A DNA stretch of 64,000 nucleotides from the NCBI GenBank assembly GCA_015059065.1, contig SVBE01000005.1, forward strand, positions 1 to 64,000. The letters run 5' to 3'. The translations under genes were made by a program, and so were the position numbers. Below are positions 7,717-24,916 of this stretch, one piece after another (within the stretch, counting starts at the first letter, position 1; every line of letters begins with the position of its first letter). The notes beneath the pieces are model-generated. The model ran no database searches and was not told the origin of the DNA. It was given only the letters and a program-made list of their open reading frames with translations. The DNA is from Erysipelotrichaceae bacterium. GTDB taxonomy: Bacteria; Bacillota_I; Bacilli_A; RFN20; CAG-826.

Positions 7717-8924
7717 TGATTAAGAAACTAAGAATAAAATTTATCATCATCTCGATGTTATCGGTTCTTTTTGTTCTCGCGGTGACTATTGGAGCGATCA
7801 ATATCACTAACTATGTCGTCATTGAAAATGAGGCGAGTGGGGCGGTCACTGAAGTGATGAGACAGGGAACTTCAAGTGAAGGCTTTATCCCTGGCCCACA
7901 AGGTGGTGGAGATAGAAGAGATATTAGACAGGACCATTATTTCATCGTTTCTTTTAATAACGATGGGACGATTAATAAAATTAATAACACCCATATGTTC
8001 ATGTATTCTGAAGCGGAATGTAAAGCATTAGCAACACAGGTCTATAACAAAGAATTAGTTGGTGGAAAATATGGCACCTTACGATATGCTTTAGAAAAGA
8101 AAAACGATGGTTTAACATATGTTGGTTTTGTCGATATCAAAGATAAAATGGACAGTTTTAATAATTTCTTATTGTTATCTTCTTTAATCTCTTTAGGTGC
8201 TTTCCTCGTCTTATTCGTTCTCATATTCTTTGGGTCTAAATTAGTATTTAAATCCACGGAAGAAGCATATCGAAAGCAGAAGAGATTTATCACAAATGCA
8301 TCGCATGAATTAAAAACACCACTGACGATTATTTCGGCAGATATGGATTTAATTGAGATGGATAATGGGAAAAGCGAATGGAGTGATTCTGTTCGCGATC
8401 AAGTGAAAAGATTAACAGATATGACTAATCAATTAGTCACTTTGTCAAAACTAGAAGAAGATGATAAGTCGCGTTTCCCAATGGAAGAATTCTCTGTTAA
8501 CGATGTCTTTAAAAAAGCCGTGGAATCATTCTCTCCAAGCTTTAAAAACGAAGGCATTAAATTCTCTAGCAATATTTCTAGCAATATCTCGATGTATGGA
8601 AATAAATATCTCATCGATCAGTTAATCTATATCTTCTTAGATAATTCTCTTAAATATACAGGGGGAGAACAAAAGAGTTCATATTTCGTCGTCAGTGAGA
8701 ACAAGAACAAAGTTGAACTGCGCTTCTCAAATACGATCGATAAAAACGATGAAGTTGACGTCAAACAAATCATGGAAAGATTCTACCGCTCCCCATCGAA
8801 TAAAAAAGAAGGTTCAGGAGTGGGGTTAAGCATCGCTCAAGAGATCATCAGATTCCATAAAGGAAAAATAGATATCGATAAAAATAATAGCACCTTATCG
8901 TTTGTTGTAACGCTGAATAATTAG
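7716..8924 (+). CDS. sensor histidine kinase
   Basis: Two TM segments, H-box FITNASHELKTPLT, N-box DNSLKY, G-box GSGVGLSIAQEI; starts on the stop of the response regulator. Confidence 0.92.
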   Translation: MIKKLRIKFIIISMLSVLFVLAVTIGAINITNYVVIENEASGAVTEVMRQGTSSEGFIPGPQGGGDRRDIRQDHYFIVSFNNDGTINKINNTHMFMYSEAECKALATQVYNKELVGGKYGTLRYALEKKNDGLTYVGFVDIKDKMDSFNNFLLLSSLISLGAFLVLFVLIFFGSKLVFKSTEEAYRKQKRFITNASHELKTPLTIISADMDLIEMDNGKSEWSDSVRDQVKRLTDMTNQLVTLSKLEEDDKSRFPMEEFSVNDVFKKAVESFSPSFKNEGIKFSSNISSNISMYGNKYLIDQLIYIFLDNSLKYTGGEQKSSYFVVSENKNKVELRFSNTIDKNDEVDVKQIMERFYRSPSNKKEGSGVGLSIAQEIIRFHKGKIDIDKNNSTLSFVVTLNN

Positions 8925-8927
8925 ATT

Positions 8928-8948
8928 AACTCCTTAAGGAGTTTTTCT
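8928..8948 (+). terminator. intrinsic terminator
   Basis: AACTCCTTAAGGAGTTTTTC. Confidence 0.7.
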
Positions 8949-8967
8949 TTATATTATATATGAGTAA

Positions 8968-8976
8968 TGTTATAAT
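8968..8976 (+). promoter_or_regulatory. extended -10 promoter element (TGTTATAAT)
   Basis: TGnTATAAT 7 nt before predicted RNA start at about 8983. Confidence 0.6.
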
Positions 8977-8982
8977 TTTATT

Positions 8983-9330
8983 GTTACATATATGCAGACT
9001 CCAAACGCGTCATAAGGTCGAAGAATGAAACACTTCTAGAGTAGACATAAACTTGGCTCAAAACGGGAAGAGGGCACCCATATATGGAACTGGTATGTCG
9101 TATGTGTTAGGGCATATCAATGTGGAAAGCACCGCCCAGTGTGAAATGAGCCCCCAAAGGAACAAACCCAATGCGGAATCCCAAAGGGCAAGATGTTCAT
9201 GCAAACGCTCCACACAATAGAAATATTGATCCTGAGGCCATCCAAGGAAGGATGTAACACCACAAGGTAGAACTGGTAGGGATATCAGAGGCTATCTTGA
9301 CAAAGGTGTTTTCATTTGGATGGCTTTTTA
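8983..9330 (+). ncRNA. candidate structured non-coding RNA, family unidentified
   Basis: No ORF; visibly GC-richer than flanks; own extended -10; 3' rod hairpin (9237-9245/9316-9324, 9256-9261/9305-9310, 9264-9270/9292-9298, 9273-9277/9284-9288) followed by T-run; long-range ATCAAT(9116-9121)/ATTGAT(9225-9230). Confidence 0.55.
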
Positions 9331-9386
9331 TATTTCTCCTTTTGTGAACACCTTAAAGTTCATTGTTCAAGATAGGAGGGAAAAAG

Positions 9387-10505
9387 ATGAACAAAGACTA
9401 TGACAATGCTGTTAAGGTCATTAAAACAGCAATTTTAAACAGCCAATTAGATGCACTAAAGTCCATCAATGAAAAACAATTGATTCTTTATTATGCAATT
9501 GGCAAGTACATTTCGCTTAACACCAGAAATGGGAAATGGGGAGAAAGTGTTATTGATGAGATAGGTAATCGATTGAACGCAGAACTTCCCGGTTTAAGAG
9601 GCTTTTCAAGCAGAAATTTGAGAAACATGAGGCAATTCTATGAAGAGTGGAAAATGCTAGAACATGTTAAAAATGATAATTTGGAAGACGCGTCTGCCAA
9701 AATACAAAATATAATTGATTGCTCTATCAACATTGAGTACATCAATAGTGTGTTTGATATTGATATTCATGATTTTTTATCATTGTCATTTTCTAATCAT
9801 ATGATTATTATTTCAAAAGTTAAGTCGATGGTTGAAAGATTATTTTATTTAAAGCAATGTATTTCTAATCGATATAGTTATCGTGAGTTGAAAATTGCTA
9901 TATCTAATGACGACTATCATCACCAAGGACAACTATCCAACAATTTTGAGAAAACTATATCAGACAATAGCAGAGTTATTAAGGCAATTAATTCTTTTAA
10001 AGATCAATATTTGCTAGATTATGTTAATGCTGAAGAGATTGATGTTAGAGATAAGATGGATGTCGATGAAAAAGTGATTGAAAATGGTATAGTTCATAAC
10101 ATTAAGAGATTTATTCTTACTTTCGGCAAAGATTTTGCTTTTATTGGGAACCAATATCATCTTGAAGTATTTGGAGAAGACCAATATGTAGATTTGTTGT
10201 TCTTCAATAGAGAACTTAATTGTTTGGTGGCGGTTGAGCTCAAAACTGGAAAATTCAAAACATCATATCTTGGGCAATTAAGCGGATATCTTGCCGTTCT
10301 AGATAAATGTGAAAGAAAAGAACACGAAAACCTGCCTATTGGAATAATATTGTGTAAAGATATGAATAAATCATTCGTCGATTTTGTGATTCGCGATTAC
10401 AATAGCCCAATGGGTGTTTCTACATATAAAGATATGTCAGATAAAGTGAAAGAGCACCTACCTAGTATTGAAGAGTTAACCAAACTCCTTGATTCAGATG
10501 ATTGA
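9387..10505 (+). CDS. DUF1016 (YhcG-type) PDDEXK nuclease domain protein
   Basis: Start moved from TTG 9363 to ATG 9387 with AGGAGGG upstream; N-terminal DUF1016 helices; C-terminal YVDLLFFNRELNCLVAVELKTGKF (D...ExK). Confidence 0.85.
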   Translation: MNKDYDNAVKVIKTAILNSQLDALKSINEKQLILYYAIGKYISLNTRNGKWGESVIDEIGNRLNAELPGLRGFSSRNLRNMRQFYEEWKMLEHVKNDNLEDASAKIQNIIDCSINIEYINSVFDIDIHDFLSLSFSNHMIIISKVKSMVERLFYLKQCISNRYSYRELKIAISNDDYHHQGQLSNNFEKTISDNSRVIKAINSFKDQYLLDYVNAEEIDVRDKMDVDEKVIENGIVHNIKRFILTFGKDFAFIGNQYHLEVFGEDQYVDLLFFNRELNCLVAVELKTGKFKTSYLGQLSGYLAVLDKCERKEHENLPIGIILCKDMNKSFVDFVIRDYNSPMGVSTYKDMSDKVKEHLPSIEELTKLLDSDD

Positions 10506-10519
10506 TAGAAAAAACTGGA

Positions 10520-11767
10520 CTAAATTCTGTCCAGTTCTTCTTTAATGCCTTCTTTATCGAGGTTTTGACCGATGAAGACTAATTTATTCAATTTGTCTTT
10601 CCATTTCTCATCCCAGTCATGGGCGAAGAATTCATCGTTGGCTAGCAAGGCTTTTATTTGTCGTGGTGTCAATGTTTCAGAATACCATTTACCGTTTTCC
10701 ATGAGCTTTCTTTGTTTGCCCGCGGATTCATAAACATATGACATCTTTTCATCATTAGAGAAATAGACAATGCCTTTGCTACGGATAATATTTCTACCAT
10801 TATTAGCGACCCAGTCTTCGAACTTATTTCTATCAAATGGTCTTCTGCGATAATAGACGAATGTATTGACGTTATATTCATCAGCAGTTCCTTCATCATC
10901 GTTTTGATCAACCCCATGTTCGTGATGGTGATGATGGTGGTGATGTTCATGTTCTTCGTGCTCGTGCTCATCATCGTCATCATCGTCATCGTCGTGATCG
11001 TGATGGTGTTCATCAGCGTCTTCTTCGTTATCCCAGGAATCGAATTCTCTAATCCAAGCAGCAGAAGAAGCAGCTTTTTCATATGAATATAAGTGGGTAT
11101 CAATAAGTTTATCGATATCGATATCGCAGTAATCAGTTTCGATGATTGTCGCGTTATCTTGCAAAGCAAGAATCACTTTCTTGATCTTTTCTAATTCATC
11201 TTTAGAGACTTCTGAACATTTGTTGAGAAGAACGATATCACAGAATTCGATTTGTTGGATGATGAGGTTTTCTAAATCCTCTTCTCCTCTTTCTGCAGAG
11301 CTTAAAGCATCTCCACATCCGAATTCATCTCTAAGTCTAAGAGCGTCAGTGACTGAGATAATCGCATCAAGAGTGTAGAACTTTGGAAGATTTTGTTTGT
11401 TGAATTCTTCTTCCATATATTGAATTGTTTGAGCGATTGGGACTGGTTCACAGATGCCGCTTGCTTCGATTAAGATGTGATCAAATTTTTGTGAATTGAC
11501 GATATCAGCGAGTTGGCTGATTAAGTCTGCTTTTAATGTGCAGCAGATACAGCCGTTTTGTAAGGCGACGAGGTTATCATCTTTAGAATTGACAACTCCG
11601 CCTTTTTGAATGAGTTCTGCGTCGATGTTGACTTCGCCTAGGTCATTGACGATAACTGCCATCTTATGACCTTTAGCATTTTTTAAGATATGGTTGATTA
11701 AAGTGGTCTTACCACTTCCGAGGTAACCGGTGATCAACGTAATAGGTACTGTTTTAAATTGTTCCAT
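10520..11767 (-). CDS. CobW/COG0523 family GTP-binding metallochaperone-like protein
   Basis: GYLGSGKTTLINHIL Walker A, GCICC metal motif, His/Asp/Glu-rich central loop. Confidence 0.9.
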   Translation of the reverse strand: MEQFKTVPITLITGYLGSGKTTLINHILKNAKGHKMAVIVNDLGEVNIDAELIQKGGVVNSKDDNLVALQNGCICCTLKADLISQLADIVNSQKFDHILIEASGICEPVPIAQTIQYMEEEFNKQNLPKFYTLDAIISVTDALRLRDEFGCGDALSSAERGEEDLENLIIQQIEFCDIVLLNKCSEVSKDELEKIKKVILALQDNATIIETDYCDIDIDKLIDTHLYSYEKAASSAAWIREFDSWDNEEDADEHHHDHDDDDDDDDEHEHEEHEHHHHHHHHEHGVDQNDDEGTADEYNVNTFVYYRRRPFDRNKFEDWVANNGRNIIRSKGIVYFSNDEKMSYVYESAGKQRKLMENGKWYSETLTPRQIKALLANDEFFAHDWDEKWKDKLNKLVFIGQNLDKEGIKEELDRI

Positions 11768-16186: not shown

Positions 16187-19100
16187 ATGGCAAAAATCGT
16201 TAAGTTTTTACCAGGTTTATTTGCAGTGGCTGTTTTAGGCCTATCTGCTTGTGGTTCAAATGAACCCGCACCTAATACGACATCGGAATACACTCCGAGT
16301 ACTAGCAAGAGCGATCCAAAGAGCGAACCAACTTCTAGCAGCTCAATTGCTCCAATTAGCAGTGGAACATCTAATTCATCGAGTGAGCATCAACACACTT
16401 ATAGCGGTGAATGGACTTATGATGAAACTTATCACTAGCATGAACCAACATGCGGCGATACGGAAGAAGTCGCCGATAAAGCGGAACACATCATGGACGA
16501 TGGGGTAATCACCACTGAACCAACATGTAAAGAAAAAGGCGTTAAGACTTATTCCTGTACAGTCTGTGATTATTCATATACCGAAGAAGTGGAAATAGTG
16601 GATCACTCCTATGAATCTAAACTCTCGTTTGATGAAGAAAATCACTGGACAGCCTGTAAAACATGCGATGAAAAATTTAACCCTGCACCTCACGATATGT
16701 ATGACGCTGGTACAACCACCTTATATGAAGATGGTTATTACCGTGAATATCAAATAGAAAAATGTAGTTACTGTGATTATCTAGTCAAAACCCACATCCA
16801 TACTTATGACGATACTTGGGTCGACGTTGGCGAAGAAGGTCACGCGCATCCAGCCAACTGTGGACATAATGTTACTAGTGAGTCAGAAGAACACGTCTAT
16901 TATGAATGGGATTCTTATTATGACGAAGAAGGAAACTTCATCCAAGAATGCGCGACTTGTGGCCATATTTCTAAGACCGCTCCAAGCGCAGATGATTATG
17001 TTTCTGAAGATGGATTCCTCTATCACCTTGAAGGTGGTAAGGTCCACATCACTGGCTTAACCGAAGAAGCAAAAACTAAGAAATTCTTAACTATTCCAAG
17101 CAAAATTGATGGTAAAGCAGTTGAAGCGATTGACGACAACGCAGATTTCAAAGGTATCAAGGTCGCTGCCTTAACATTTGAAGAAGGCATTGAATATATT
17201 GGTTTTAATTCCCTTCAAAAAATCGAGTGGTTCAGCGGCCATGGTGATATCATTCTCCCTGATTCATTGATTGTTTGCCAAAGCTTACCAAACATTTCTA
17301 GCAACTTAAGACTAGGCAAAAACCTCCTTGTTTTCTCAAGCAGCAGTAGTAATAATTATTATTTAAACGAATTGACTATTGCCTCGACTAATATTGAATC
17401 ATTTAGCGGCTATCATTTCTCTCCTAAGAAAGTGGTCGTGGAGGAAGGCGTTATCAAATTGCCATCCAACATCTTCTTCTCAAACGAAAGCAGCATTGAA
17501 GAAGTTGTTCTCCCAAGCACTATCCTTTCTGTCGCGAATAACTTCCGTAGTCTTAAATCAGAATTATATTTAAGAGAAGGTAAAGTCAGCTATCTCAAAG
17601 CGGGTAGTAACGAACACGCGATCGCTGTCGACACTCATTATGATGAATATGAAGAAACGATCACTTTCCATAATGACACAAGAATTATCGCTTCTGGAGC
17701 ATGCTCCGACATCTATTACGATTACGGCGCGGTTAAATGGGTGCTCCCTGATAATCTAGAAGTCTTTGACGATTCAACTAACTATCCATATAGCAGACTC
17801 GATTACAACATCCTTTTAGATGATTTGAATTATGACTCCGTTGGTGGAGGATATTATCTCGGCTCTGCTAATAACCCATATTTACTTCTCGTTGATCACT
17901 CTAATCCATTAGAATTAACAATTCATGAAAACTGCCGTGTTATCGGTCCAAATGCTTTAAATGGATTTGAAAAGAAGATTAATTTCAATAGCAAATTAGT
18001 TTCTGTTTGTTACCGTGGTTTAGACGGCATCAGAGTGGACTATGAGCTATCTCTTCCTGAATCAATTAAATTCATGGCTAATAGTGCGTTCAGCGTAGAT
18101 GGTTCTTCCACTGGCAAAGTCATCTTAGGCAAAAATATTACTTGCTTAAATAATTCATTCGGACTTATCAAATGCGATCTCGAATATGGTGATATCGACT
18201 ATATCTATCAATTCCCCTTCGCCGATAAGGATTTAACATTACCAGAAGGTATGAAATATGCCTACTTAACTGGTTCTATTAACAAACTCTATGTTCCTTC
18301 TTCAATCCGTTATTTATCTATCGGAAGCACGAACGGTATCAAAGAATTACATTATGATGGCACTTTAGAAGAATACGCGAGCATTCCAAAATTCGATGAT
18401 AGTTACTCAACTGGTACGGCATGGATTAATAGGTTATATGTTAATAATGATCAATTAGTGACCAACTTAGACTTATCTACTGGTTTCACCCATATCGCTA
18501 GAGGCGGATTATTCGCGATTAGCAGCATCCGAGAATTAGTGATGCCAAGCGAAGACGTCGCCATTGATAAATATGGTATTGGTTATTATAGAAATCTTGA
18601 GAAGTTACAACTCACATCTTCTCTTGAAGAATTCCTCACCGCGAGCTTAGATCAAGTATCGAGAAACGATGAATGGAGATTATTCGATAAAGATGGTAAT
18701 GAAATTACCAAGATTGAAGTGGACAAGAACTTCAAGGCTTCAACTTCCATCTATAACTGTGCGAGTATCACGGAAGTCGTTCTCAAGGAGGACTGCACTA
18801 ACTACAACTTTACTGGATTATTCAGTTATCTTCCTAATTTAACAAAAGCGACTATCAAAGATGGAGTAACTTATATTCCAGACGGATTCTTATCCGGATG
18901 TGAAGGTATTACTAGCATCACCCTTCCTGATTCGGTGACTGATATCGACGACAGTGCATTTGAAAACTGTGTTAATCTCGAAACTATCAACCTTCCAGCT
19001 TCCCTTAAATACATTGGTAGAGAAGCGTTTAAGAATGACGCGAAACTCGTGATGCCTGTCGTGTTTAATGATATTGATCACTTTATAAACATTGATTCTG

Positions 19101-22100
19101 AAGCCTTCTATGGCACTGGCGTTACTAGCGTCAACCTTTCTAACGCGAATATCGGATATTACGCATTTGCGAATGCTAAATCCCTCACCAGTGTCCTCTT
19201 AGGTAGCAAAGTGACAAGAGTGGGTTCCCAAGCCTTCTCTAACAATAGCCCATCCATCATCTGTAGAAGCTATACTGTTAAAGACGATTTCAATTACAGC
19301 AATTATGCCAGCGATTGGTACACCAATCCATTCCCAGCCATCACTCATTATGCTGGTTATATCACTGATCAAGCAGGCAAGCGTGATGAAAGCACTTATG
19401 ACTACGCGAACAAATACACCGCTCAATATTATTTAACACAAGATAATAAAGGTAATATTACCGGTGCCTACTTATATTATTTCAGCAATAATTCTGCTGC
19501 TGACGCTGTGTCAGAAATAACTATTGACCAATGTTATGAAACATATTCATCTTTAAAGAAAGTATCCTATACAGTTAAAGGTATTTGTCCAAATGCCTTC
19601 GAAAAAGGCAATACTAAGGTTACTAAGGTAACTATTGGCTCTAAAGTGGTGAATCTCGCCCCAGGAGCTTTAAGTGGATTATCCAGATTACAAAACTTAA
19701 TTATTGAATCTGGTGTCACTAACGTTGTCTCGCTCTTCAATGATGAAGCGAAAGTTGGATATTATTCAGCAGGTCCTTCTGGCAATAACTATATTCCAAA
19801 GACCCTTCTTGAAGTGGAATTATATGGCACTGATTTAACGGGTGATGCTTTATATGGTGCGAGAAGTATTAAAACTCTCATCTTGAATAACGGTACAGAG
19901 TCTATCAGCACTTCCACAAATTCGTTCAAAAATACTGATATTAGAGTCATTCACTATGACACCAACTCATATATGAGTGCTTCCGCGATCACTCCAGGTA
20001 GCACAAGCTATAACGGTATCGCGAAAAATGCGGAATATGTCTATAGAAATGATGATGCTAACGAAGCTCCGTTCTCCTATGTTCTCGACCAAGATAGAGA
20101 TAGCTTTATCATCAGAGTGAATAGTGATGGCAAAGATAGCATCGTCCAATTCATACGCAATTCCGATTATGTCTTTATCGAAAATATCATCATTGATGAA
20201 AACGGTACTAACCGACACATCTTCTCCATCGAACCATATGCCTTCGAAGGATGTGTGAACCTAGCCAATGTGAAAATTGAAAGCAACTTGCTCGAATCCA
20301 TCGGTGCTTATGCTTTCAAGAATTGTACTTCGCTTAAATCAATCACCATCCCAAGCAATGTGACCAATATTGGTGGTGGCGCCTTTAACGGCTCATTACT
20401 ATTTAGAGTGTATTTCCAAGGTGGATGTAATATTACCAATGATCCATTCTACGATTCTCGACTTATCGAAGTAGTGACCGATGATATCAACGATCTCCCA
20501 TCCGTCATGAGAGATAAATATAAATACGCTTCATCTTTAAGCGCATCCAAAGTGGTGTTCCACGACGATGGCTGTGTAAGCTATGAAGATACATTATATT
20601 ACGCTCCTGAATGCGACGTATTAACAATGCCAGAAGGAGTTACTAAAATCTATAAAATTGAAGTTCTAACGGAAAATCCACATAATCAAATCATTTTCCG
20701 CGATGACTTTGATTTCAGCACCTTGTATTCCACTGATTTCGAACCAGTGAGAAAAATGATGTTAGAAACAGTAGATGAATATGGAGTTATCTATCTCGGT
20801 AACGAAGATAACCCATATCAAATTCTCTATTCCGCTGCTGGTTTAACTGAAGAGTCATATTCTATTAATAATAAATGCATTTCGATTTACGCTAAGGCTT
20901 TCTGCGATAACACTGATATCGAAACAATCGTCATTCCTAATGGTGTGCGTTACATCAATAGAATGGCTTTCGACGGATGTAGCAATCTCAAGGATATCAC
21001 GATCAGCGATTCCGTTGTCTTAATTGATTATGAAGCTTTCTGTTACTGCAGCAAATTAACAGAAATAACTCTCCCAACAAACGCTGTATTAGGACAAGAT
21101 ATATTGCTTGGTTGCAGTGGTTTGAAGAAATTAACTTATTCAGGCACTGTTGCCTCTTACTATCTCTCTTACCAAGCTCTCGATGTGGAAGAAGTAGTCT
21201 TCACAGGTAACTCTATCGTTAGTGAGGCTTGGAGTTATAGAGGAGAATTAAAGAAGATTACCTTCACTGCTGAAAATACTGTGATTAACTCTAAAGCTTT
21301 CTCTAATTGCGGCGGTTTAACTTCTCTCGTCATCCCAGAAAACATTATTTATCTCGGCAAATTTGCATTTGCAAACTGCAACGGTTTAGTTTCTGTGGTC
21401 ATCCCAGAAACACTAACAAGTCTAGATTCTCAAGTCTTTGCAGAATGTGAAAACTTAAAAGAAGTTACTGTCCCTGGTACTGCGGCAATATTCACCAGTG
21501 GATTGTTCGACGATTGTAACGCTATTGAGAAGATCACTTTAACTTCTCTCGAAACTGGACATTATTTACAACAACTATTTGCTTCAAGTTATCTCGCGAA
21601 TAAAAATCTTCCAGTATCACTTAAGGAAGTAGTGCTCTCTGAAGGTATTTCCGCCCTCGACAACATGTTGTTAACACGCGCTGAAAACGTTGAAAAGGTT
21701 ACGCTCCCATCCACATTAGAAACTATTGGGGAGCAAGCATTCTACGGCTGTACATCCCTTAAATCCATTGTCATCCCTGATAAAGTGGAGACGATCAATT
21801 CATTGACATTCAGCAACTGTACTGCTCTTACATCAGTAGTGCTCGGTGAAGGTGTGACTACAATAGATACTAAAGCCTTCTATGATTGCACTTCCTTAGA
21901 AAAGATCTACTTCCCAAGCAGTCTCTCTTCTGTTGGTGAACTTGCATTCTATAACTGCAACGCTCTCAGCGAAGTCTATTATGGCGGCACGATCGGTGAG
22001 TGGGGTACTATTTCCTACGCCAAAGCGAACGCTAACCCATTATCAACTGGAAATGCTAAATTATATTTACTCGATGAAAACGGCGATGTGGAATTCGCTG

Positions 22101-24916
22101 GTAAGAAATTCTCGTTATTTACTAGAACAGTGCTCAATGAGGAAGACTTTGCAGGAGTTACTGCTCTTAAGTCTTATGCTTATGTGGGCTTAGGATTAAC
22201 AGAAGTCCATATTCCTGACACAGTGACTTCCATGGAAAAATATCTCTTCCAAAACAACACCACGATGGTGACTCTTGAATTACCATATTTAGGCTCCTCC
22301 CTTGAAAAGGATTACTACTTCACTGGTATGGACGAATTATTCAAAGACGATATTATTCCAGCCACATTGACTAATGTGACTATCCGTGGTGGTTATCTCA
22401 TCAACAACGCCTTTGTTACCAACAACAATGTGAAGAATTTGGTGTTAGGTGATGATGTCATATTCGCTCATATTGATGGATATATGTACTACGAAGACTT
22501 CATGTCAAGTAAATGTTTATCAGGATGTCAACACATCGAGAAGATTACTCTCAACGTCGATAAGCTTGGTAGTTTGTCTTACTCCGCCAATTATTACAGA
22601 TTATCAACTTTATTCTCTGGAACTTCTGGAACTTCTGGAACTCCATCCACATTAACCGAGGTAGTGGCGACTGGTAATAAGATTCCTGCTAGAGTGTTCC
22701 AAAATTCTTCATCTGTGAATAAAATTACACTTTTAGGCGAATTTGAATCGATTGGTGGTAGTGCTTTCACTGGTACATCCATCACAACTATTACAATCCC
22801 TGCTAGCGTTACTAAAATTGACTCATTTGCCTTCTTTGATGCTGATTCTCTTGTTTCCGTCATCTTTGAAGAAGGAAGTAACTTAGAAGTCATTGCTTCT
22901 AATGCCTTTACATCTTGTGATGTGCTCGCTGAAATTGAAATTCCAGGTAGTGTAGTTGAATTAGCAAGTGATGCATTTGAATACTGCCCTAACTTAACCA
23001 GCATATACTTCGATGATACAGAGACTGGTGCAAGATATATTAAAACTGCTACTAACAAGTATCACACTTTAGTGAGCGTTGATAAGAACATTACTTCCTT
23101 TGCTTTCAATAAAAATACATTGGGCATTGGTAATAACGCTTTCTATAACTGTAAAAACATCACTTCGATCACTATTCCTAATACGATTAGAAGAATTGAC
23201 GCTAGTGCCTTTGAAGGATGCTCTAACTTAGCAAGTGTGACATTTGAAGATGGTATTCAACTCTCTTCAATCCCAGCCCTCGCGTTTGGTAATTGTACTA
23301 AGCTTACTTCCGTTATCGTTCCTGAAGGAGTAACTAGTATCGGAGAGAATGCTTTCGGCGGATGTTCCCTCTTAGAAAACATTTATCTCCCGTCTACTCT
23401 TGAAAGCATGTACACCAGTGCACTGAAAAACCATAAGAGTGGAATTAACATCTACTTCAAAGGTGATTTAGGTGATTGGGTGAGCCTCACATTAACGGAT
23501 TCATCTTACAATAACTACAATGGCAATGCGAACATCTACTATTATGATGGTAGTGATTATGCTCTAATTGGTTCAAATCTCGTCATTCCTGGGAAAGTTA
23601 CTTCCATCAACGATATGACTCTTGGACAATTAGATATTGATACTCTTGATATTTCCGAAGGCGTGGAGAACATTGGAAAATATGCCTTTGCAGGAGCGAA
23701 AATGACAGAAGTCACTCTCCCAAGCTCATTGACACATATCGGCATGAATGCCTTTGATACTTGTTCCTCATTAGTGGATGTCTATTATAACGGCACGATT
23801 AAGGATTGGCTCGGTATTTACTTCGACAGCCCGACTTCTAACCCAATGTATTACGCGACTTACTTCTATATCTTAGATGAAAATGGCGATGTGAATCATA
23901 ACGGTCAAAAGTATTCTTTACTCCGTGATTTAGTCATCCCAGAAGGAACCACTTCGATTAATGGCTATGCGTTCTACAGCTTTGAATGTTTATATAGCGT
24001 GACCATCCCATCTACACTTGCCACTGTTAATAACGCTGCATTCTATGAATGTACTGGTATCGTTCAAGTGGTGAACAATAATTCACAATTACAGAATCTT
24101 GGTGACAATACTAATAACGGTTACATTGCTTATTATGCTGTAACTCATGATCACGTTAGCAGAATCTATAAAGATGCTGATAATGGTTTCGTCTACCACA
24201 TCGTTAGTGGTTTACGTACTGTTCTTGACTATGTAGGAAGCGATCCAGATGTGGTTGTTCCAAGTGACTATAATGCGCTTAACACTTTAAGTATCGATAA
24301 ACCGTTTATCGAATCTGTGAAGCTCACTTCTACAAATCAAAGTGTAAGAGTTAACGAAAAAGCCTTTGGCTTACACGCGACGGGATTAAGAAAGATCTCT
24401 TTGACCACTGTGTATAACTACACAAACGGCGTAAGCGATCCAACATTCAGCAAGATGATGTATCCTGAAGTTGCTAAGAACTTAACAGAAATCGAACTCA
24501 CTTCAAATGTCTTCCAAATCAAGAATGGTTCTCTTGCTAATCTCACTTCATTAGAAAAGATTACTGTTCCATTTGTGGGAACAGGATCAATCGGATCTGG
24601 CACTTCAGTGAGATTCGTTGATATCTTTGATTCCGTTCCATCCACTTTAAGAACTGTGGTAGTTGCAGAGAACCCATATTCGACAAAATTAGGCTCATAT
24701 TCATTCGATGGTGGAGCTTCTATGGTCACTTCATTAACCATCCCAAGCACAATCACTCAAATTGACGGTTATGCTTTTAGTGGTAGTAATTACACAAGCA
24801 TCAATTTCGCTGGAACTAAAGACCAGTGGAGCAAAATCACTAAGGACGTCAACTGGAAGAGCGGTTGCTCATCATTAACACAGATCGTGTGTACTGATGA
24901 AACAGTTTCAGTCTAG
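16187..24916 (+). CDS. giant BspA-like leucine-rich-repeat (LRR_5) lipoprotein, interrupted by an in-frame TAG at 16436-16438
   Basis: ORFs 16187-16438 and 16493-24916 share a frame; only stop between them is TAG 16436; N-terminus MAKIVKFLPGLFAVAVLGLSACGS (lipobox), then dozens of LTSVTIPxSVTxIGxxAFxxCxxL repeats. Confidence 0.85.
22616..22642 (+). repeat. 9-bp x 3 in-frame microsatellite (TCTGGAACT)
   Basis: TCTGGAACTTCTGGAACTTCTGGAACT encoding SGTSGTSGT. Confidence 0.9.

What the first reader, a model, noticed from the sequence alone, without database searches (positions are those of the whole stretch)
9256..9386. Mutually exclusive helices linking the RNA 3' domain to the DUF1016 ribosome-binding site
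Segment B (CTATCTTGAcaAAGGTGTT, 9292-9310) can pair upstream with A (AACACCacAAGGTAG, 9256-9270) inside the terminator-like rod, or downstream with C: CTATCTTGA/TCAAGATAG (9 bp, 9292-9300/9367-9375) and AAGGTGTT/AACACCTT (8 bp, 9303-9310/9347-9354). C abuts and partly overlaps the AGGAGG (9374-9379) of the nuclease gene. This has the geometry of an attenuator or translational switch: A:B terminates the RNA; read-through with B:C would hide the nuclease SD.
Basis: partly seen in the sequence, partly recalled or inferred. Interest (0 to 1): 0.7.

Follow-up and report, generated by a model that had tools for sequence, protein, structure and literature searches.

The report
RNA safety catch on toxin genes
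A large structured RNA sits in front of interchangeable toxin-like and nuclease genes in gut Bacilli and carries a conserved two-state fold at the gene's start, so it probably works as a built-in safety catch that keeps these dangerous genes off until a signal, still unknown, releases them.

Summary
Window 9204-9309 is Rfam RF02941 ("COG3943 RNA"), but that family covers only the 3' third of a ~340-nt leader running from an extended -10 box (8971) to a terminator (9329). I found 94 copies in relatives; all 93 with flanking sequence carry a Shine-Dalgarno (SD) 42-71 nt downstream. The genes behind it are interchangeable and mostly toxin- or defence-like: DUF1016/YhcG nuclease, RhuM-Fic, a MazF-like fold, BrnT, and others.

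Two mutually exclusive pairs are conserved with covariation: hairpin D:E versus terminator D:F, and rod A:B versus B:C. The conserved B:C helix is GGUGUUUUC:GAAAACACC. B:C does not reach the SD; it encloses a conserved anti-SD (CUCC), so it more likely frees the SD than hides it.

Best reading: a cis-acting attenuator and translation switch, off by default, on swappable toxin-type genes. The trigger is unknown, and no experiment has been done.

The parts
8966..9352 (+). Leader module: extended -10 box, structured RNA, terminator, anti-SD and segment C
   Evidence: 385/387 identical to a second copy in the same genome (G000:C18) in front of a different gene; identity stops at both ends
8969..8976 (+). 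Extended -10 promoter element (TGTTATAAT)
   Evidence: One search lists TATAAT 8971-8976 with TG before it; conserved at the 5' end of nearly all copies
8983..9203 (+). 5' domain of the RNA, not covered by Rfam RF02941; start near 8983 inferred from the -10 box
   Evidence: Alignment of 91 copies; covarying hairpin with loop GUGUUAGG
9094..9120 (+). Covarying hairpin whose conserved loop is GUGUUAGG 9104-9111
   Evidence: Strongest covarying stem of the leader alignment
9120..9138 (+). 5' strand of long-range helix P2 (AUGUGG) and conserved GGAAAGCACCGCCCA; partner strand UCCACA in 9208-9214
   Evidence: Perfect covariation: AUGUGG/CCACA, AUAGGG/CCCUA, AUGCGG/CCGCA, AUGAGG/CCUCA, AUGGGG/CCCCA
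9204..9309 (+). Match to Rfam RF02941 COG3943 RNA (3' third of the leader)
   Evidence: 88.7 bits, E 7.9e-15
9236..9243 (+). Segment D (GGCCAUCC), pairs with E or with F
   Evidence: The A/G column covaries with both E (AU 40, GC 14) and F (AU 41, GC 11)
9250..9254 (+). Segment E (GGAUG), hairpin with D; forms before F is transcribed
   Evidence: P(D:E) 0.77 in the transcript to 9316, 0.00 once F is present; swap test z -6.9
9256..9261 (+). Segment A (AACACC)
   Evidence: A:B pairs in 98.2% of cells on 55 loci
9263..9300 (+). Inner rod helix between A and B
   Evidence: All 7 pairs have changes on both sides, 96.1% paired
9305..9313 (+). Segment B (GGUGUUUUC), pairs with A or with C
9318..9329 (+). 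Segment F (GGAUGGC) and U-tract: 3' half of the intrinsic terminator D:F
   Evidence: D:F pairs in 99.5% of cells; swap test z -7.7; P(D:F) 1.00 at the end of the U-tract
9335..9339 (+). Anti-SD segment (UCUCC)
   Evidence: 4 nt or more complementary to the SD in 67 of 92 loci against 19% in shuffles; 7 nt or more in 48
9344..9352 (+). Segment C (GUGAACACC), partner of B; end of the shared leader module
   Evidence: B:C helix paired in 91.7% of cells, two-sided changes at the inner pairs
9363..9369 (+). Arm X (UUGUUCA) just upstream of the SD
   Evidence: Complementary to the gene's own first codons: 30 independent clusters, z -7.4, 0/3000; downstream codons show none
9374..9379 (+). Shine-Dalgarno sequence AGGAGG
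   Evidence: Direct reading
9387..10505 (+). DUF1016/YhcG PD-(D/E)XK nuclease gene, 372 aa; codons 1-3 (9388-9394, UGAACAA) are arm Y
   Evidence: Pfam PF17761 and PF06250; PADLOC PDC-S02, E 2.4e-113

Best explanation
The feature is the 3' switch of a ~340-nt cis-acting leader RNA that controls interchangeable, mostly toxin- or defence-type genes; here a DUF1016/YhcG nuclease. Transcription starts at an extended -10 box. The nascent RNA first forms hairpin D:E and rod A:B. When F is made it normally captures D, closing the rod into an intrinsic terminator, so most transcripts end at ~9329. If a transcript escapes while that fold stays, the anti-SD CUCC pairs with the SD and translation is also off. 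When the 5' domain, or something bound to it, keeps D paired with E, polymerase reads through. C then takes B from A, the B:C hairpin encloses F and the anti-SD, and the SD is left open, shown in the loop of the gene-specific X:Y hairpin. Shown by comparative evidence: the leader position, the two conserved exclusive pairs, the terminator, the anti-SD, X:Y and the payload swapping. Inferred: which state is ON, the order of events, and that a signal acts through the 5' domain. The trigger is unknown.
For: 93 of 93 copies with flanking sequence have an SD 42-71 nt after the RNA. Both exclusive structures are supported on 55 loci: terminated fold 97.9% of cells paired, read-through fold 94.7%, 0/500 shuffles each for percentage paired and covariation score. 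The same D column covaries with E and with F. Swap tests give z -5.3 to -9.5, all 0/2000. D:E forms before F and is replaced by D:F. SD openness rises from 0.11 to 0.34 when A:B and D:F are forbidden. X:Y is specific to the start codon region. Unrelated payloads behind near-identical leaders argue for control in cis. No leader peptide, no tandem repeats.
Against: The terminated fold is 9.7 kcal/mol more stable on average and more stable in all 90 loci, and unconstrained folding almost never shows B:C, so a strong trigger or kinetic trapping is needed. In the window, forbidding A:B and D:F does not by itself give B:C. The anti-SD is missing in 25 of 92 loci. X:Y is weak before the MazF-like genes. 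No expression data exist, and the 5' domain shows no known ligand-binding class.
Confidence: 0.58

Rival explanations
1. One reading: A:B terminates, and in read-through RNA B:C hides the SD, so B:C is an OFF state.
For: In the window a 9-bp match reaches the first bases of the SD. B:C is conserved.
Against: The 9-bp match is unique to the window and near chance; the conserved C ends 21 nt before the SD; the SD is hidden by the anti-SD, which lies inside B:C.
Confidence: 0.12
2. A type III-like toxin-antitoxin: the terminated RNA binds and inhibits the downstream protein, and the terminator sets the RNA:protein ratio.
For: Same order of parts as type III systems: promoter, structured RNA, Rho-independent terminator, toxin gene (PMC5086642). 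One payload family has a MazF-like predicted fold.
Against: No tandem repeats. Near-identical RNA precedes unrelated proteins (PDDEXK nuclease, RhuM-Fic, BrnT), with at least 36 payload changes on the RNA tree. It does not explain B:C and X:Y, which lie beyond the terminator.
Confidence: 0.12
3. A trans-acting sRNA, as Rfam's type suggests; the neighbouring gene is incidental.
For: Own promoter and strong terminator; one copy at a contig end lacks C and SD (L385).
Against: An SD follows in 93 of 93 copies at a narrow distance, with conserved helices that include mRNA sequence.
Confidence: 0.06
4. The RNA is kept mainly as a shared recombination platform or mobile module through which payload genes are exchanged; the folds matter for that and not for regulation.
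For: Leader copies within a genome are 0.96-1.00 identical in front of different genes (G000, G001, G069), while the leaders at the matching sites of the sister genome are only about 0.75 identical to them.
Against: Compensatory changes in RNA helices, a conserved promoter, terminator, anti-SD and start-site hairpin point to selection on RNA function. It may be true in addition.
Confidence: 0.12

Closest known systems
Rfam RF02941 (COG3943 RNA, annotated as sRNA)
   Same: Window 9204-9309 matches above the gathering score, full model length.
   Different: The family covers the 3' third only. It lacks the 5' domain, helix P2, the terminator closure D:F, the anti-SD and B:C, and it is typed as an sRNA although nearly all copies are gene leaders.
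Type III toxin-antitoxin systems (ToxIN, CptIN, TenpIN)
   Same: Promoter, structured RNA, Rho-independent terminator, toxin-type gene in one transcript.
   Different: No tandem antitoxin repeats; payloads are not ToxN-type; one RNA serves unrelated proteins; conserved switch helices extend into the mRNA.
Riboswitches and attenuator leaders with combined transcription and translation control
   Same: Conserved alternative helices around an intrinsic terminator and an SD/anti-SD pair.
   Different: Payload genes do not share a pathway, so no ligand can be guessed; the helix that frees the SD lies downstream of the terminator; a gene-specific start-site hairpin is added.
PADLOC candidate defence genes PDC-S02 (DUF1016) and PDC-S23/S05 (RhuM)
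   Same: The payload proteins match these models strongly.
   Different: Defence is a prediction for these families; the RNA leader is not part of those definitions.

Membership tests
Rfam RF02941 COG3943 RNA | Score above the curated gathering score over the model | tested here: met
   88.7 bits against 71.8, model positions 1-108 of 108
Rfam RF02941 COG3943 RNA | Acts as a separate sRNA (Rfam type) | tested here: inconclusive
   The position before an SD in 93/93 copies argues against it; the terminator and one copy without SD leave room
Type III toxin-antitoxin | Single promoter, antitoxin RNA, Rho-independent terminator, toxin gene in that order | tested here: met
   definition from PMC5086642
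[quoted passage not shown]
   No direct repeat family in 8966-9400; longest direct repeat 9 nt
Type III toxin-antitoxin | ToxN/CptN/TenpN-type endoribonuclease toxin | tested here: not met
   The window payload is DUF1016_N + YhcG_C
Type III toxin-antitoxin | RNA binds and inhibits the toxin protein | not testable with these tools
   Needs a binding or rescue experiment
Attenuator/riboswitch-like cis leader | Conserved mutually exclusive helices, one of them an intrinsic terminator | tested here: met
Attenuator/riboswitch-like cis leader | A trigger (ligand, protein, tRNA, ribosome position) shifts the equilibrium | not testable with these tools
   No leader peptide with an SD; no other Rfam family at E up to 1 apart from a spurious snoRNA hit
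DUF1016/YhcG PD-(D/E)XK nuclease | DUF1016_N and YhcG_C domains above cut-off | tested here: met
   100.2 and 152.5 bits
Anti-phage defence system | Protein matches a defence model | tested here: met
   PDC-S02, a candidate model, E 2.4e-113
Anti-phage defence system | Protects cells against phage | not testable with these tools
   Needs phage challenge

The most novel reading that the evidence does not exclude
A distinct class of large leader RNA that acts as a universal safety catch on swappable toxin and defence genes. It senses one common cue, such as phage takeover or translation arrest, through its 5' domain, and licenses any toxin-type gene placed behind it by switching transcription and translation on together, with each new gene fitted by its own start-site hairpin.
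Probability: 0.3. Interest if true: 0.87.

Novelty: new variant of a known kind. Interest (0 to 1): 0.68.

Why it matters
RF02941 is an RNA family without a known function, labelled as an sRNA. The evidence here gives it a role in cis, extends it threefold, and predicts a testable two-state mechanism. If right, it shows how gut Bacilli keep potentially lethal nuclease and toxin genes silent with one RNA device that is independent of the gene it guards, and it opens the question of which cellular event releases them. It also gives a handle (the leader) for finding new toxin or defence genes, as with the unannotated ~115-aa family whose predicted fold resembles MazF.

Tried and rejected
1) The 9-bp CTATCTTGA/TCAAGATAG helix as a conserved switch element: rejected. 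2) A leader-peptide attenuator: no ORF with an SD in the leader, and none of the 22 GGAGG sites in the 94 leaders has an ATG behind it. 3) Tandem-repeat antitoxin RNA: no repeats. 4) A pseudoknot between loop GUGUUA and segment A (UAACAC): possible by sequence, but 21 copies have AAACAC with the same loop, so no covariation. 5) Pairing of the conserved GGAAAGUAUC with B: 8-9 bp with wobbles, near-invariant, cannot be tested by covariation. 8) Literature: no paper in the held library discusses COG3943 RNA or DUF1016 with an RNA; the original motif paper is not held.

Full report
WHAT WAS CHECKED. The stretch is part of a known but functionally uncharacterised RNA family: window 9204-9309 matches Rfam RF02941, COG3943 RNA, over its full length at 88.7 bits against a gathering score of 71.8. 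The gene behind it (9387-10505) is a DUF1016_N + YhcG_C protein with a PD-(D/E)XK nuclease domain.

THE RNA IS LARGER THAN ITS RFAM MODEL. The window's genome holds a second copy on another contig. It is 385/387 identical over window 8966-9352 and unlike outside that stretch. The shared block starts at an extended -10 box (TGTTATAAT, 8969-8976) and ends at segment C. An alignment of 91 copies shows conservation from that -10 box onwards, including a strongly covarying hairpin with loop GUGUUAGG. A long-range helix ties the 5' domain to the Rfam part: AUGUGG near 9120 pairs with UCCACA near 9210, and the pair occurs as AUGUGG/CCACA, AUAGGG/CCCUA, AUGCGG/CCGCA, AUGAGG/CCUCA and AUGGGG/CCCCA. So RF02941 is the 3' third of a single RNA of about 340 nt.

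WHERE IT OCCURS. 66 of 279 genomes of the order and 64 of 224 of the family carry it. Samples of 395 genomes of the class and 392 of the phylum gave hits only within the same family. Named records with the core motif are mostly Bacilli, Erysipelotrichaceae or Bacillales MAGs from rumen and gut. I collected 94 copies.

IT IS A LEADER. Of 93 copies with enough flanking sequence, all have an SD 42-71 nt after the Rfam match. The genes are DUF1016 nuclease (38), RhuM (16), an unannotated ~115-aa family here called YHFR (16), DUF4314, usually followed by a DUF1016 gene (12), BrnT (5), a 60-aa protein followed by YHFR (2) and four others, one of them a KilA-N protein. DUF1016 and RhuM match PADLOC candidate defence families PDC-S02 and PDC-S23/S05. 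The three RhuM proteins scanned carry a C-terminal Fic/DOC domain. RhuM has been proposed to be a toxin domain from its gene neighbourhoods (PMC3710099). The YHFR model (mean pLDDT 86) has MazF toxins as its 31 best matches in the PDB, at weak E-values of 0.05 to 0.4 and TM-scores of about 0.5-0.6; this suggests a MazF-like fold and does not prove it. No promoter-like site was found between 9330 and the window's gene.

THE PAYLOADS ARE SWAPPED. Leaders within one genome can be almost identical in front of different genes: G000 DUF1016/RhuM 1.00, G001 0.97 (two DUF1016 types), G069 DUF1016/RhuM 0.96. At two orthologous sites of the window's genome and its sister genome the chromosomal flanks match; the leader type differs at both sites and the payload order differs at one. 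A tree of 90 leaders needs at least 36 changes of payload type. The join between module and payload lies just after segment C.

THE ALTERNATIVE HELICES. Segments: D GGCCAUCC 9236-9243, E GGAUG 9250-9254, A AACACC 9256-9261, B GGUGUUUUC 9305-9313, F GGAUGGC 9318-9324 with U-tract 9325-9329, anti-SD UCUCC 9335-9339, C GUGAACACC 9344-9352. On 55 distinct loci the terminated structure (D:F, A:B, rod) has 97.9% of cells paired against 90.4% in shuffles (0/500), and the read-through structure (D:E, B:C, rod) 94.7% against 86.0% (0/500). One D column changes A to G together with both E (AU 40, GC 14) and F (AU 41, GC 11), so one nucleotide is constrained by two partners. Swapping partners between loci weakens D:E (z -6.9), D:F (z -7.7), A:B (z -5.3) and B:C (z -9.5), each 0/2000. 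The part of B:C that A does not share still covaries when only 18 clusters at 75% identity are used (z 5.5, 0/5000).

THE START SITE. An anti-SD of at least 4 nt follows the U-tract in 67 of 92 loci against 19% in shuffles, and of 7 nt or more in 48. A second element was found here: the bases just before the SD (X, UUGUUCA 9363-9369) are complementary to the gene's own first codons (Y, UGAACAA 9388-9394). Across 30 clusters at 65% identity cognate X:Y is -6.4 kcal/mol against -3.8 for swapped partners (z -7.4, 0/3000), while windows further inside the genes show nothing. It is strong for DUF1016, RhuM and DUF4314 genes and weak for YHFR.

HOW IT PROBABLY WORKS. In growing transcripts D:E (0.77) and A:B (0.90) form before F; once F is made D:F takes over (1.00). 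This is the termination decision. B:C cannot prevent termination because C comes after the U-tract, so it acts in transcripts that have escaped. With B:C forbidden, the SD is unpaired 0.11 of the time on average, held by the anti-SD; with A:B and D:F forbidden it rises to 0.34, higher in 77 of 90 loci (Wilcoxon p 1e-12). The anti-SD lies inside the B:C hairpin. The terminated state is about 9.7 kcal/mol more stable in these calculations, so something must hold the other state during transcription; the conserved 5' domain is the natural candidate. In the window itself, simply forbidding A:B and D:F does not always give B:C, so this direction is an inference.

COMPARISON. By order of parts it resembles type III toxin-antitoxin systems, which have a promoter, antitoxin RNA, Rho-independent terminator and toxin gene (PMC5086642). 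It lacks their defining tandem repeats, its payloads are of several unrelated kinds, and it has conserved helices beyond the terminator. By mechanism it resembles riboswitch-like attenuators with joint control of termination and SD access; no ligand class is evident and no leader peptide exists.

VERDICT. The finding is real in its main idea and wrong in one of its two helices and probably in its direction. The surrounding system, a payload-independent leader switch on toxin-type genes, appears not to have been described in the literature I could search; the paper that defined the motif was not available.

Noticed in passing
L050:12182-12532 and 15 homologues (YHFR family): An unannotated ~115-aa protein family behind the leader has a predicted structure whose best PDB matches are all MazF toxins; no Pfam or NCBIfam match.
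   Followed up: partly
G000:C18 (L032), second copy of the leader: Near-identical leader before a short ORF, then RhuM-Fic, a broken second DUF1016 gene (family match split over two frames) and a BrnT toxin with a CopG/BrnA-like gene: a string of toxin-type genes at one site.
   Followed up: partly
G000/G001 orthologous sites (window 8900-9400, L032, L033, L035): Leaders within each genome are 0.97-1.00 alike, while orthologous leaders differ (about 0.72-0.75): concerted replacement of the whole RNA at two sites.
   Followed up: partly
L385:10000-10101 (IMG/VR contig 3300032007_003637, contig end): A copy of the RNA followed by a second terminator-like hairpin and without anti-SD, C or SD within the contig: either a free-standing RNA or a degraded leader. 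The coding genes on the contig piece look chromosomal.
   Followed up: partly
window 9104-9111, 9124-9138: The conserved loop GUGUUA could pair with A or C, and GGAAAGYAYY could pair with B; both are near-invariant, so covariation cannot test them.
   Followed up: partly
L042 (G031:C10): A YHFR gene behind the leader is cut short after 40 codons, followed by what look like transposase reading frames: likely an inactivating insertion in a toxin-type gene.
   Followed up: no
window 16493-24916: A 2807-aa ORF rich in leucine-rich-repeat-like (BspA-type) sequence, likely a giant surface protein.
   Followed up: no
window 10520-11767 (-): CobW-family protein with a long His/Asp/Glu-rich metal-binding stretch, convergent with the DUF1016 gene and separated by a terminator-like hairpin.
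   Followed up: no
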